Under the pieces are notes generated by a model. The model saw only the letters and a list, made by a program, of their open reading frames with translations. It searched no databases and had not been told where the DNA came from. Position numbers and translations under genes: made by a program. From positions 356,501-420,500 of the forward strand of contig NW_027325145.1 in the NCBI RefSeq assembly GCF_028372415.1: a stretch of 64,000 bases of DNA, written 5' to 3'. This document shows positions 4,297 through 9,675 of the stretch, in pieces (within the stretch, counting starts at the first letter, position 1; the number at the start of each line of letters is the position of its first letter). The stretch comes from Notamacropus eugenii. Its lineage: Eukaryota > Chordata > Mammalia > Diprotodontia > Macropodidae.

Positions 4297-4398
4297 CAGT
4301 TTACTGCCCCTTTTTATTTCTTTTTGAATGTCTTCAACAGAAAATCCACCAAGACACTCATTATCAGAATATGATGATACCAAAGCAGATGAAAACAG
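4297..4398 (-). CDS. PHF6Y: PHF6Y exon 3
   Basis: 102 bp, 34 codons, phase 0 at both ends. It begins [14 protein letters not shown] and ends KEIKRGSKL. The acceptor is ...attgtag and the donor gtaagt. It matches human exon 3 except five mostly conservative changes (for example H to Y in SSHSD). Confidence 0.92.
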
Positions 4399-4699
4399 CT
4401 ACAATTATACAAAAAGACACTTGAAAAATCATTCAGATCTTGCCATCACATCATGCATATTTTAAAATATATAAAATGGATATAATTCAATAGAAAGGAA
4501 AGATTTTAACATTTAGCAACTATCTATATTTTCATAATTTATTTTTCAAAATTATACCTACCATACATTTATGGTGAGCTACTACTTTCTGATTTCCAGA
4601 TATTAATAGCTGTCCACATTCCTTGTCACTACTAGATTTACAAAACGCACATCTATGCAATCTTGAACAGCTTTTCTTCTGTCCACCTGAGCTTGACAT
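4297..4699 (-). CDS. PHF6Y: PHF6Y 5' coding part (exons 2-3), inverted relative to the rest of the gene
   Basis: Two minus-strand exons (4699-4562, 4398-4297) encode residues 1-80 of a PHF6 protein: the N-terminus and the first half of extended PHD domain 1. PHF6 is a nuclear/nucleolar chromatin protein with two ePHD zinc modules. Family work links it to transcription control and to NuRD. The start MSSS, the zinc ligands CAFC, KEC and HHKC, and the LFSSALVSS segment are all present. Frames are open and the splice sites are canonical (AG|, |GTAGGT, |GTAAGT). The next exons (4 onward) lie on the plus strand more than 4.8 kb away, so in this order they cannot be spliced in cis. Compared with recalled human PHF6, exon 2 differs at 13 of 46 and exon 3 at 5 of 34 positions. 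Alternatives are an extra inverted duplicate or an assembly error. Confidence 0.9.
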
Positions 4700-4715
4700 A
4701 GTTTTTGATTAATAA
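4562..4715 (-). CDS. PHF6Y: PHF6Y exon 2 with start codon
   Basis: The ATG is at 4699-4697, and 46 codons run to the donor gtaggt at 4561. The exon begins at 4715 after a polypyrimidine acceptor ending tttcag, leaving a 16-nt 5'UTR. Cys19, Cys22-equivalent, Cys28 and the HHKC ligands of ePHD1 are kept, while the basic RQRK stretch of human residues 13-16 has become RLHR. Confidence 0.92.
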
Positions 4716-7700
4716 CTGAAAAAAAACTACAACGCACACACAAAAAATGCAAGGTCATTAATTTTGAGGCAAAATCTTATTAGCCATAAACAGAGACACC
4801 TGATATGTCTTACTCAAAGTTGTATGAACTTCATATGGTAAACTAGAAACACTACTGCATTTGAAGACTTTGTACAATCCAATTCAGGTCATTTAATGCT
4901 TCCAGGTTTTTCAGAAATTCTTAACTGTTTTTAATGGCATGGACTATATTGGCGTATTTCTCAGAATCATGTTTTTAATTGAAGGAAAAGCTAAATTTCA
5001 ACTACAGAGTTACTGAAAACAAAGTTGTAATTTTTATCCATTCAAGTGCATGGATCCTCTAAAATCTAGCCATGATTCCCATGATAAGAACTTTTATCTT
5101 AAAATGATCCCTAAGATCTTTTCCTTATGATACTATATTCTGATGACTCTCCTCTATGTACATATGAAGTTCTACCTCTGAAAAAATTGGTTAACCAAAA
5201 TAAATAAGATTCCTTTCAAGTCTAATGTCCAGTTACTAAGGAATAGCTAAATTTTGTAATGGGATATCATTTGAATTGATACAGAATAAAGTAATCTGAA
5301 TCAGAAAAACAAAATACACAATAACTACTACACTCTTTAAAAAATTAAAACAAAACTGAACATTATGTATTTATAATCACCTAATCTAATTATGGAAAAA
5401 AATTGAAAACATCCATATGCTTCTCCTTTTTTGAAGAATTCTGGAGCCATGTGTGTGGAAGGAGATGTCTTGAGGAGTATAAAGTAGGTTTGTTGAAATA
5501 AAAGATATGATATCAAGTAAAAGAAAGATTAGGTTGGATTTTTTTGCTTGGTTTTGGAGGGAAACCAATAATTATTTGGAAGTCAAGAGATGCAACTGAA
5601 GCTCAACATTAAAAAATTCTTAACAAATAACCTCTCTGAAAAATAATAATGAAAAGCTTTTATTGTGTATTATGGGCATGAGAAGTCCTACTGATAAAAA
5701 AACAAATATAAAACAAAATGGATTGCGTTTTGATATTCCCAGAGATATTCAAGCATCTAATCATGTGTTTCATGTATTTGGTTAGATAAAGTCACTCATT
5801 TTACGTGTGAAGAGAGAATGATTCATGTGGGTTTTTAAAAAATATTTCCTATGCCGTCCCTAACAAACGAATGTATTTCTTAGGAAACTGCTAAATTTAA
5901 CTTTAATGATTTGTCACATAATAATATAAAGTACCTGTAAAGATAAAATATATTTTAGTTTTTAAAACAATTATAAATTTGCTCACTTATTTTTTAATTC
6001 AGAAAAAAATTTTTTGGCACTTCATGTTAATAGTGTTAAACTTTGAATCCCATTTCTACCCTATAAAGGTTCTGTAATCTTTAGGAAGTCATTATATTTA
6101 TATAAATGAGAAAGTCATTTGTGTATTTACATATATTTAGAATTTCTTTGAATGAATAATCTTTTCATTAAAGTGCCTACTTTGTGTCAAGCACTGTGTT
6201 GAGTACTAGGTATATACAGAGAAAATCAATTAGTTCTGACTCTCAAACTGTAATCTAATAGAGGAATTCAGTGGCAAAGTAGATGCTAGTGTTTCTTCCT
6301 TCATGTCACTTCCATTGATAAAATCTACTCCTCTGGCGTGGAACCACTGGCCAGAGGAAAGGAATGTGGTAGCAAGGACCAGCTGGATCTTCTGTAGCTG
6401 CAGCACTGTCCCCAGGCTGCATCACCACAGAGAGCAGGAAGGGGAAGGCATTGCTATTCCCAAGACTGTTGTTCTCAGTCGTGGTCTATCCCCATCAAGG
6501 TGTGATAGTGGTTAAGGTGGTGGTGGTTTGACTTACCTGACATAAGGTGCCTGCTGTTTGTCTATCTTTCTTCAGCTAGGCAGTTTGTTCCACTTTCAGG
6601 GCTGGTAGCAGTTGATAAGAAAATCATATATAGCCTTACAAGAATCACAGATTTAGGGTTTGCAGGGGCACTGATACCCCTTTAATGTGGATTGGAATCC
6701 ACGTTCTTTTTATTGAAAAGTAATGATAGATTAGACCTACATTCTTTTTGAGTAGGATAACAAGTTTGTAACTTGACTTCTGTTTTTTCATTGTACAAAA
6801 CACAACATATATAAATTATCAGGTCAATGTTTTAAGGCATAAGTCTGTCAGTTTGGTTTTGTAGAACTTTGAGTGACTATTGATGCTTTATAAGATTAGT
6901 TCAACTTCAGATAATCTTTTTTTTGTTTACAGTCATTTCTATTTACCTTGTATTTGTGCTACATTGTATTATTTGTTGTACCCCAACCATAAATCTGTGA
7001 TTTTGCACAAGATGTTCTTCAAATAGTTATTTCTGGGAAATATAGGAGACAGCATGTGGTAGGCCGAATCAAAGCACTTTAAACAGTAGCTCCCTTTAGA
7101 ACCTGAAGTCAACAAATCAGAAATCTTAACCTTTACACAACTTTAGGTTATGAAATTAAAAGCAATTAATTTCATGAAGCCTAATGCCCTACTTCTAGAT
7201 TTTTTTTTTCCAGTCATGAGTCAGTCACTATTCATACAGAATCAACATGTGCTTAAAATATTTAGGAAATGTTATGTGTGAAATATTATTGTGGATACAG
7301 AAGTTCTGGTCTAGTTACCTCACAAAGATTACACCCTGAAATTTAAAGTCATAGCCACCAAAGTTCTTTTGATTGTCAAATGTTTCAAGTTCAGAATTAG
7401 GAAGTTGATATGATTCTGTCTGTGGAAAAAAGAGATTTTCATTTGTTTTGTCACCATACACTAAAAATAATGGAACTTATCAGAGTTGAATCTTAAATCT
7501 TCTTTATGCATAATTTCCTGAGTGTAAGAACAGGGACTGCTTCATTTTCACTTGTATTTATCATAGTATTTTATATATTTAATTTATCTTTCCAATTTTT
7601 TGTGATTTTAAAAAATGATGTATACATTTGTTTATTAACTAGTATCGTTCACTACATAGAACAGAAATTGAAATTTGCAATAATGTAACAAAGTTCTTAA

Positions 7701-8149
7701 TTGAAATATTTCTGTTACTAGAACTTTGGATTATTTTTGAAATAATTTTAAAATACTTAATGATGAAAGCAAGAAAGCGAAGCAGGAGTAATATTTAAAG
7801 AAAAACAACTCCCAAAAGAAGAAAAATTGTGTTTAAAAGGAGGCTAGAGAAATCCCTGGGGGCAGAATTCAGAAAAGGAAGTGTTTTCTTCAGAAATATA
7901 AAAATATATAATAATATTTAACAGCTAATTAACTGGTAAACAATAGCTCAAATTTGATCATTTGTTTTACCTATAATAACTGTTTTCTACTCATTACACT
8001 ACGATGAGCTTCAGAGTAAAACGTTACTGTCATCTATGTTTGTTCTTAAAAAGGTGCTCCACCCTTCGTAGACCCCACTATATCCCAATTTCTAGAAATA
8101 GTTCTATAATCAGGAAAAAAACGAAGCATCTCAAACGCAGTAACTCACC
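4716..8149 (-). other. Presumed PHF6Y intron 1 (inverted block)
   Basis: 3.4 kb, AT-rich. Around 6090-6240 there is an old MIR/L2-like phrase ('gtgcctactttgtgtcaagc'), and around 7500-7580 a similar ancient-repeat phrase. A locally GC-richer patch lies at 6330-6500. No exon was recognised on either strand. Confidence 0.5.
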
Positions 8150-8400: not shown

Positions 8401-8739
8401 ACTTCTGGAAGTTGCAATGTATCTGATTTTAAAGAATGTTAAAAACCACAGGGAAAATAACAAAAATAATATTCCTGTACCAAGCATTTATAAAGAAATT
8501 TAACTTGTGCTCCAAATTCAGCGCAACCTTATGTTCCAGATTTCTGTTGATATTGCACATGGTAGCATTTTATGTACAATCTTCAAATAAAAAGAAAAAA
8601 TAATTGAAACAAATAAGAATTAGTATAAAACTTCTGTTTTGTAGTAATTATTCGATAGCAGTTATCGAAAAAATGTTATACTAAACAGCAATATTAAAGA
8701 AATAGGTGTGTAATACTTGTCTTTCCACTTCTACAAAAA

Positions 8740-9265
8740 AGTGAATTGGGCAGTAGGAAAGTCTTGTATCTCCATCTGAGTCCTTTTTGATTTCATGAAT
8801 TTTGTCACATTTACTTTTGATTGTATGGTGTGTCACTTTCTTTTCATTTACATTGCCATAGTTGCCATATATGCTTCACTCTGTTTACTTCAGTCTGTGT
8901 CAGTTCATGCAGACTTTTGCATAATCCTTTACATTCATTACATGTAAGTTTTTACATCACATTAGTATTCCATTACATTCATATACCACAGTTAGTTTAT
9001 CTATTTCCCACTTAATGGGAAATGTTTATCTCCAATTCCAGTGTCTACCATAAAAACAGCTGTTATAATTATTTGGGGGATGTTTGCGAAATTTTGCACC
9101 ATTTCACAGCTCTATCATTAATGTATACTTATTATTACTATTATGCTATCATTCCACATCCCTACATACTTAACATCAACTTTTTGTTGTTGCTTTTTCA
9201 GTTTGCAGACCATGAGGTAGAACTACAGGGTACTTTTGATTTGCATTTCCTTCATTATTTCTGAT
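8740..9265 (-). mobile_element. Old antisense L1 fragment
   Basis: The order of phrases (probable homologue of the L1 3' region and ORF2 end read backwards: 'ttcatttacattgccatag', 'aatgtttatctccaattcca', 'ttgatttgcatttccttcat') follows the younger antisense L1 copies at 15045-16080 and 58240-59230. It is heavily diverged and non-coding. It lies between the inverted 5' block and exon 4, so it may be near the inversion breakpoint. Confidence 0.6.
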
Positions 9266-9541
9266 TTACAGCATGATTATTACACTTAATTTTATTAATA
9301 ACTAATAGATGGGGCTTGATACAGGACACAATTTTCAGTACATAAAGTGAAAGTAATTACTTGAAGTAAGTTGCAAAGGCAATATGAATCCCTATGAAAT
9401 CACTGATTGTTACTATCAATCACAACTGCTGCAGTAAGTGATCTTTTTTTCCTAGAAAAAATGTGCTATATATCTGTTCTAATAATATCTAGCAATATAC
9501 ATTTAGTAAAATCTGATTGTAATTATTTTATGTTGCTGTAG

Positions 9542-9675
9542 ATGTGTTCTTTATGCCATTGTCCAGGAGCAACAATTGGATGTGATGTGAAAACATGTCA
9601 CAGAACATATCACTACCTCTGTGCCTTACATGACAGAGCTCAGATGCAAGAGGAACCTTCACAAGGGATTTACAT
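9542..9675 (+). CDS. PHF6Y: PHF6Y exon 4 (ePHD1 second half)
   Basis: 134 bp after acceptor ttgctgtag, donor gtgatt (non-consensus at +3/+4 but GT). It encodes [14 protein letters not shown]... to GIY. All Cys/His zinc ligands are retained. The non-ligand His of HYHC is Leu, and KAQIREK is RAQMQEE. Its length and phase equal those of exon 9, reflecting the ancient internal ePHD duplication. Confidence 0.95.

What the first reader, a model, noticed from the sequence alone, without database searches (positions are those of the whole stretch)
4297..9675. PHF6Y is split: promoter side and exons 2-3 are inverted relative to exons 4-10
Exon 2 (with the ATG) and exon 3 read on the minus strand at 4715-4297, while exon 4 and all later exons read on the plus strand from 9542. 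Phases would fit perfectly if rejoined, frames are open and splice sites intact. So either an inversion of the promoter-exon 3 block happened recently on this chromosome, or exons 2-3 are an inverted duplicate inside a longer intron 3 (with the working 5' exons left of the window), or the assembly misjoined the two arms of a Y palindrome. The first would inactivate or re-promote a conserved chromatin gene.
Basis: partly seen in the sequence, partly recalled or inferred. Interest (0 to 1): 0.88.

Follow-up and report, generated by a model that had tools for sequence, protein, structure and literature searches.

The report
Wallaby Y gene straddles a palindrome
In what is very likely the tammar wallaby Y chromosome, the gene PHF6Y is not broken: its reading frame runs intact from the single-copy centre of a DNA palindrome with 87,000-base arms into the left arm, the 'wrong-way' exons are the mirror copy in the right arm, and this layout would keep the gene whole even if the centre flipped over.

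Summary
Exons 2-3 of PHF6Y read on the minus strand (4699-4297) and exons 4-10 on the plus strand (9542-38777). But the window is C63:356501-420500 of its assembly. Left of it, on the minus strand, lies a second, base-for-base identical set of exons 4-10. Joined to exons 2-3 these give, in order and on one strand, the complete 357-aa protein that NCBI lists for Notamacropus eugenii. The window shows half of a palindrome: arms of 87.3 kb, 64 mismatches in 87,287 compared bases, spacer 13,752 bp, inner boundary at window 8218/8219. That boundary cuts the gene's own predicted promoter/exon-1 region. So each arm carries the promoter core plus exons 4-10 (and a complete RBMY); the spacer carries the exon-1 donor, exons 2-3 and most of intron 3. 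Reversing the spacer in silico rebuilds the same promoter-to-exon-4 sequence on the other strand, so inversion between the arms should not harm the gene. X-Y dN/dS is alike for exons 2-3 (0.148) and 4-10 (0.169). The searches listed showed no report of a marsupial Y palindrome. Unshown: spacer flipping in animals, expression of the orphan exons, support by raw reads.

The parts
1..8218 (.). Right 8.2 kb of the palindrome's single-copy spacer (whole spacer C63:350967-364718, 13,752 bp; its left 5.5 kb lie outside the window)
   Evidence: self-alignment of C63:246501-457500; boundary alignment
8219..64000 (+). Right palindrome arm (continues to C63:452084); mirror image of the left arm C63:263653-350966; 64 mismatches and 16 indels over the whole arm
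8219..8350 (-). Predicted promoter core of PHF6Y (CpG-rich, GC box, GCGCATGC motif), inside the arm, so mirrored at the inner end of the left arm. Promoter status is inferred from sequence; the motif names are recalled
   Evidence: CpG scans; motifs; identity of arms
8149..8218 (-). Spacer part of predicted exon 1, ending in the donor AG|GTGAGT; transcription start unknown
   Evidence: sequence
4562..4715 (-). PHF6Y exon 2 (ATG at 4699; acceptor TTTTTTTTCAG next to 4715; donor GTAGGT)
   Evidence: one match on C63
4297..4398 (-). PHF6Y exon 3 (donor GTAAGT); continues by an 11,153-bp intron 3 to exon 4 at C63:349643-349510 (minus), left of the window
9542..9675 (+). Mirror-copy exon 4, starts with an in-frame ATG; exact copy of C63:349510-349643 (minus)
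9882..9925 (+). Mirror-copy exon 5; exact copy of C63:349260-349303 (minus)
17802..17944 (+). Mirror-copy exon 6; exact copy of C63:341241-341383 (minus)
18103..18246 (+). Mirror-copy exon 7; exact copy of C63:340939-341082 (minus)
30843..30947 (+). Mirror-copy exon 8; exact copy of C63:328239-328343 (minus)
31963..32096 (+). Mirror-copy exon 9; exact copy of C63:327090-327223 (minus)
38648..38777 (+). Mirror-copy exon 10 with stop; exact copy of C63:320408-320537 (minus)
46957..52938 (+). RBMY (402 aa, 8 coding exons), right-arm copy; the 8 exon segments tested (tblastn limits) each have an identical copy in the left arm (C63:312279-306295, minus)

Best explanation
[quoted passage not shown] the intact PHF6Y reading frame lies on the minus strand, from exons 2-3 in the spacer to exons 4-10 in the left arm outside the window, and the plus-strand exons 4-10 are the mirror copy in the right arm. 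Shown: arms, spacer, boundary at 8218/8219, exact identity of the 7 duplicated exons, the collinear 357-aa frame, and that turning the spacer round in silico recreates the same promoter-to-exon-4 sequence on the plus strand. Inferred: the arms are kept alike by gene conversion, and now and then a crossover between them would flip the spacer. Because the predicted promoter core and exons 4-10 are in both arms and exons 1-3 are in the spacer, either orientation should give one whole gene (promoter from one arm, exons 1-3 from the spacer, exons 4-10 from the other arm) and one promoterless exon 4-10 set. Flipping would thus swap which arm's 3' exons are used and expose both sets to selection.
For: Window = C63:356501-420500. 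Exons 4-10 lie left of the window on minus, found by tblastn and as exact DNA copies. The joined minus-strand CDS equals P0001 letter for letter. Self-alignment gives arms 263653-350966 and 364719-452084; 64 mismatches in 87,287 compared bases and 16 indels; 22 of 79,930 in the inner eight 10-kb bins against 42 of 7,357 in the outermost, then 98.1-98.6% blocks further out. The 25 mismatches at window position <92,000 are 18 transitions and 7 transversions. GC is 36.4% in the arms and 32.3% in the spacer; higher arm GC is reported for ape palindromes (PMC11168930, passages). The X copy has the same layout: CpG island to exon 2 about 4 kb, intron 3 about 11.7 kb. In a tree with the C25 copy added, the window and 5 marsupial PHF6-like proteins form a group (100/100) that leaves the C25 copy outside. 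X-Y dN/dS is 0.148 for exons 2-3 and 0.169 for exons 4-10, with overlapping bootstrap ranges. Flip model: promoter-to-exon-4 unit of 15,520 bp found exactly on plus. Species: PHF6Y and RBMY are 100% identical to N. eugenii proteins listed with one contig length, and C25 has the length of the contig that carries N. eugenii RBMX (103,022,542).
Against: One assembly, no raw reads, so spacer orientation and arm resolution rest on the assembler. C63 is 457,500 bp here, while both NCBI proteins are listed on a 479,429-bp contig; and a published table gives 314 (which I take as scaffolds) for mMacEug1.pri (PMC11334065, passage) against 254 contigs here. I cannot explain either. The right arm's outermost block runs into the contig end. 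C63:1-246500 was not looked at. The flip test was exact only for the promoter-to-exon-4 unit: the longer unit reaching past exon 10 was not exact, as expected from the intronic arm differences. Male-specificity, expression and actual flipping are untested. A published RNA-FISH table has PHF6Y not expressed in tammar male fibroblasts (PMC3046482, passages).
Confidence: 0.93

Rival explanations
1. A recent inversion of the promoter-exon 3 block split and inactivated PHF6Y.
For: Strand change between exons 3 and 4 inside the window.
Against: An intact collinear minus-strand gene with exact exons 4-10 lies left of the window; dN/dS is alike in both blocks.
Confidence: 0.02
2. The palindrome is an assembly artefact (fold-back or false duplication) and only one exon 4-10 set exists.
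For: No reads available; the contig ends inside the outer arm; contig length differs from the NCBI listing.
Against: Arms differ by 64 mismatches (39 transitions, 25 transversions) and 16 indels, including one 52-bp unit of the minisatellite; further out the identity falls to 98.1-98.6%; a 13.75-kb spacer without mirror copy lies between them.
Confidence: 0.05
3. An addition rather than an alternative: the orphan plus-strand exons 4-10 form a second working gene. The promoter core at 8219-8350 fires both ways, and the plus-strand transcript starts translation at the ATG that opens exon 4, giving a 277-aa PHF6 without its first 80 residues.
For: Exon 4 starts with an in-frame ATG and the 834-nt frame is open; the promoter core lies about 1.2 kb away and head to head; an opossum record named PHF6Y lacks the first ePHD region and has another N-terminus (P0115).
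Against: No transcript evidence. An in-frame stop directly precedes exon 4 in the genomic sequence and no first exon with a donor is known. No separate N-truncated tammar entry was listed among the 120 of 140 hits shown, although the P0001 cluster holds 3 sequences I could not see.
Confidence: 0.12

Closest known systems
Ape Y-chromosome palindromes (PMC11168930, passages read)
   Same: Arms above 8 kb and 98% identity around a spacer; RBMY among the gene families expanded in palindromes; higher GC in arms than spacer.
   Different: Here one single gene straddles both inner boundaries: promoter core in one arm, exons 1-3 in the spacer, exons 4-10 in the opposite arm. The lineage is marsupial. 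I did not check every ape palindrome for such a gene.
Recurrent inversion between inverted repeats: yeast flip/flop region (PMC9731477, passages read) and the mammalian X inversion of Caceres et al. cited there
   Same: Near-identical inverted repeats with genes in them; homogenisation by conversion; crossover flips the middle.
   Different: In the yeast passages the repeats hold two pairs of genes. Here the repeats hold the two ends of one gene. Flipping is not shown here.
Tammar RBMY-PHF6Y BAC (PMC3046482, passages read)
   Same: The same two genes on tammar Y clone sequence named RBMY-PHF6Y.
   Different: The passages give no palindrome and no exon arrangement; PHF6Y is listed there as not expressed in male fibroblasts.
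Haemophilia A intron-22 inversion of F8 (recalled, no call)
   Same: An inverted repeat partly inside a gene; crossover inverts part of the gene.
   Different: There the gene's remaining exons are not duplicated in the other repeat, so the inversion breaks the gene. Here both arms carry exons 4-10, so inversion should leave it whole.

Membership tests
Sex-chromosome palindrome (definition in PMC11168930) | Arms at least 8 kb | tested here: met
   87.3 kb arms
Sex-chromosome palindrome (definition in PMC11168930) | At least 98% identity between arms | tested here: met
   64 mismatches in 87,287 compared bases plus 16 indels
Sex-chromosome palindrome (definition in PMC11168930) | Spacer at most 500 kb | tested here: met
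   13,752 bp
Sex-chromosome palindrome (definition in PMC11168930) | Less than 80% repetitive content | not tested
   no repeat library at hand
Sex-chromosome palindrome (definition in PMC11168930) | Lies on the Y | tested here: inconclusive
   The protein groups with 5 marsupial PHF6-like proteins and apart from the copy on C25, which is taken as the X (100/100); the opossum entry in the wider group is named PHF6Y; male-specificity not tested
PHF6 (PHF6Y) | Two extended PHD (zf-HC5HC2H) regions | tested here: met
   Pfam PF13771 and PF13832, two stretches each
PHF6 (PHF6Y) | All coding exons in one order on one strand | tested here: met
   minus strand
Recurrently inverting region between homogenised inverted repeats | Both orientations found | not testable with these tools
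   one assembly only
Recurrently inverting region between homogenised inverted repeats | Arms homogenised | tested here: inconclusive
   near-identity inside, divergence outside fits conversion but also a young duplication

The most novel reading that the evidence does not exclude
PHF6Y is a self-restoring invertible gene: its promoter core and exons 4-10 sit in both palindrome arms and exons 1-3 in the spacer, so each flip of the spacer rebuilds the gene on the other strand, alternates which arm's 3' exons are used, and keeps both sets under selection; the spacer occurs in both orientations among macropod males.
Probability: 0.4. Interest if true: 0.78.

Novelty: new variant of a known kind. 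Interest (0 to 1): 0.6.

Why it matters
A 2012 review suggested that, if truly absent from marsupials and platypus, sex-chromosome palindromes might be specific to eutherians (PMC3308322, passage). This is a palindrome with 87-kb arms carrying PHF6Y and RBMY in a marsupial, on sequence that is very likely Y. It would mean that palindromes carrying RBMY exist on both sides of the therian split, either by independent origin or from an old one. The gene layout also gives a natural test of spacer flipping: orientation can be scored by long reads, and the expected effect on the gene is nil. It also warns that a 64-kb window, or a short contig, of a palindrome can make an intact Y gene look broken.

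Tried and rejected
Simple inversion, and inverted duplicate of exons 2-3: rejected. For a time, alone, I believed that a plus-strand copy of exons 1-3 lay to the left (notes); one search showed one exon-2 match on C63, and searches showed that exons 4-10 are the duplicated part. Inverted repeats inside 1-9541 that could drive a small inversion: none convincing. An NCBI entry for a short N-terminal PHF6 from tammar: not among the 4 hits. Pfam on the three plus-strand frames of 1300-3302: nothing. X-Y DNA alignment of the arm between promoter and exon 4 did not show where 5' flank turns into intron 3, so how the promoter core came to lie in both arms is open. HPRT1 and the opossum PHF6Y N-terminus gave no credible match in the window. 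The resemblance of that opossum N-terminus to FAM122 proteins is recalled; Pfam named no family for it. Self-alignment rows under 300 bp were dropped; the output was cut, and the part that matters was repeated on a smaller stretch.
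Full report
1. Observation. Exons 2 and 3 of a PHF6 gene read on the minus strand at 4699-4562 and 4398-4297, exons 4 to 10 on the plus strand from 9542 to 38777. The splice sites are GT and AG, and the nine exons joined across the strand change give an open frame of 357 aa. The promoter side lies on the minus strand: CpG observed/expected 1.13 at 8001-8500, with a GC box and a GCGCATGC motif and a predicted exon-1 donor AG|GTGAGT after 8149 (sequence). 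There is no N in the window.

2. Identity of the sequence. The 357 aa are 100% identical to P0001, listed as PHD finger protein 6-like isoform X2 of Notamacropus eugenii, contig length 479,429. An RBMY further right (46957-52938) is 100% identical over 402 aa to P0121 of the same species and contig length. In a 17-row tree the window protein groups with six marsupial PHF6-like/PHF6Y rows, apart from pig and human PHF6 and eight other vertebrates (support 100/100). In a second 17-row tree, with the copy on C25 added and the long-branched opossum row left out, the window and five marsupial rows again form a group (100/100) with the C25 copy outside it. The assembly is 3,445,252,223 bases in 254 contigs, and the window is C63:356501-420500. 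C25, with an 81% match to exon 2, is 103,022,542 bp long, the same length as the contig listed for N. eugenii RBMX. I take it to be the X. This makes the window very likely tammar Y; male-specificity was not tested.

3. What lies outside the window. A DNA search with exon 2 gave 2 matches in the assembly: the window's own and C25. I fetched C63:246501-356500 and 420501-457500; C63:1-246500 was not seen. tblastn found exons 4-10 on the minus strand left of the window. All 7 are exact DNA copies of the window's plus-strand exons. Exons 2-3 of the window followed by these exons, all on minus and in order, give a 1074-nt frame whose product equals P0001. Intron 3 is then 11,153 bp. In the X copy exon 3 ends at 56,335,412 and exon 4 starts at 56,347,111, about 11.7 kb. 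The intact gene thus keeps the layout of its X partner; the plus-strand exons 4-10 are the extra set.

4. The palindrome. Self-alignment of the 211 kb gives an inverted repeat: left arm C63:263653-350966 (87,314 bp), right arm 364719-452084 (87,366 bp), spacer 350967-364718 (13,752 bp). The full alignment has 87,393 columns, 64 mismatches and 16 gaps. The first eight 10-kb bins hold 22 mismatches in 79,930 compared bases, the outermost bin 42 in 7,357. Outside that, blocks of 3,552 and 1,125 bp match at 98.1% and 98.6%, the last one up to the contig end. The 64 mismatches are 39 transitions and 25 transversions; of the 25 with window position below 92,000, 18 are transitions. GC is 36.4% in both arms and 32.3% in the spacer. 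No mismatch falls in exons 4-10, and the 8 RBMY exon segments tested are each found identical in the left arm. One gap is 52 bp, in a 52-bp minisatellite before RBMY.

5. The boundary. Identity starts sharply at window 8219, with at most a base or two shared beyond it. This is inside the predicted promoter/exon-1 region: the CpG-rich core is in the arm, the exon-1 donor in the spacer. The left arm therefore ends, in the gene's intron 3, with a mirrored promoter core about 1.2-1.3 kb before exon 4. How that core was copied is not settled; conversion or replication running inward past an older boundary would explain it (inference).

6. Consequence. In a script I turned the spacer round between the fixed arms. 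The 15,520-bp stretch from about 200 bp up the promoter side to just past exon 4 is then found exactly on the plus strand. The longer stretch reaching past exon 10 is not exact, as expected from the few intronic arm differences. So in either orientation one arm gives the promoter core, the spacer exons 1-3, and the other arm exons 4-10. Gene conversion between near-identical inverted repeats, occasionally resolved as a crossover, has been proposed as the cause of recurrent inversions in yeast and on the mammalian X (PMC9731477, passages). Flipping here is inferred, not seen.

7. Selection. X-Y dN/dS (Nei-Gojobori in a script) is 0.164 over 357 codons, 0.148 for exons 2-3 (bootstrap 0.066-0.304) and 0.169 for exons 4-10 (0.106-0.25), dS 0.61. 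The published wallaby PHF6X/Y K_S is 0.52 +/- 0.087 (PMC3477149, passage). Both blocks evolve like one constrained gene. This pair comparison averages X and Y branches and cannot tell the two exon 4-10 copies apart, since they are identical.

8. Orphan exons. The plus-strand set has no exon 1-3 block in its sense direction next to it. Exon 4 opens with an in-frame ATG and the set encodes 277 aa, but a stop codon directly precedes it in the genomic sequence. A two-way promoter could express it; I have no evidence that it does. An opossum entry named PHF6Y (P0115, 232 aa) lacks the first ePHD region and has another N-terminus, so 5' replacement appears to have occurred elsewhere.

9. Literature. 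Searches for PHF6Y (1 paper), marsupial Y chromosome + PHF6 (2), marsupial + Y chromosome + PHF6 (5), tammar wallaby + Y chromosome + palindrome (4), marsupial + Y chromosome + palindrome + gene conversion (20) and marsupial Y + palindrom + RBMY (0) showed no report of this palindrome in the titles, abstract starts or the passages I read. Most of the listed papers were not opened. Of the papers cited I read passages only. A 2012 review says such structures are rare on the marsupial X and might be eutherian-specific (PMC3308322). The paper on novel genes of the tammar Y (Murtagh et al. 2012, seen in a reference list) is not held, so prior notice there cannot be excluded.

10. Limits. One assembly, no reads, contig-length mismatch with the NCBI listing, a contig count (254) other than the 314 that I read as scaffolds for mMacEug1.pri (PMC11334065, passage), no genome-wide copy count (search busy). 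The gene-level conclusion (an intact minus-strand PHF6Y plus a mirror set of exons 4-10) does not depend on which way the spacer is drawn.

Noticed in passing
window 46008-46735: GC-rich minisatellite of 52-bp units just before RBMY; the two palindrome arms differ by one unit.
   Followed up: partly
window about 1480-2720: Looks like an old processed retrocopy (A-rich tail, broken frames) in the spacer; Pfam found no family in the three plus-strand frames.
   Followed up: partly
P0115: Monodelphis protein named PHF6Y has lost the first ePHD region and carries an unrelated N-terminus that resembles FAM122 proteins (recalled; Pfam gave no family).
   Followed up: partly
P0003, P0004, P0136, P0167, P0231: In devil and antechinus, PHF6-like and RBMX-like proteins are listed on contigs of 99.5 and 86.6 Mb, which seems large for a marsupial Y (recalled); perhaps X and Y sequence joined in one record.
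   Followed up: no
C63 of the assembly: Contig length 457,500 here against 479,429 for the NCBI proteins; the right arm runs into the contig end in a 98.6% block.
   Followed up: no
window 17790-17802: Tandem acceptor AAG|AAG at exon 6 could explain a second NCBI isoform one residue longer (inference).
   Followed up: no
C63:350836-350966: Mirrored promoter core inside intron 3 of the intact gene faces the spacer and could drive transcription antisense to exons 3 and 2 (inference).
   Followed up: no
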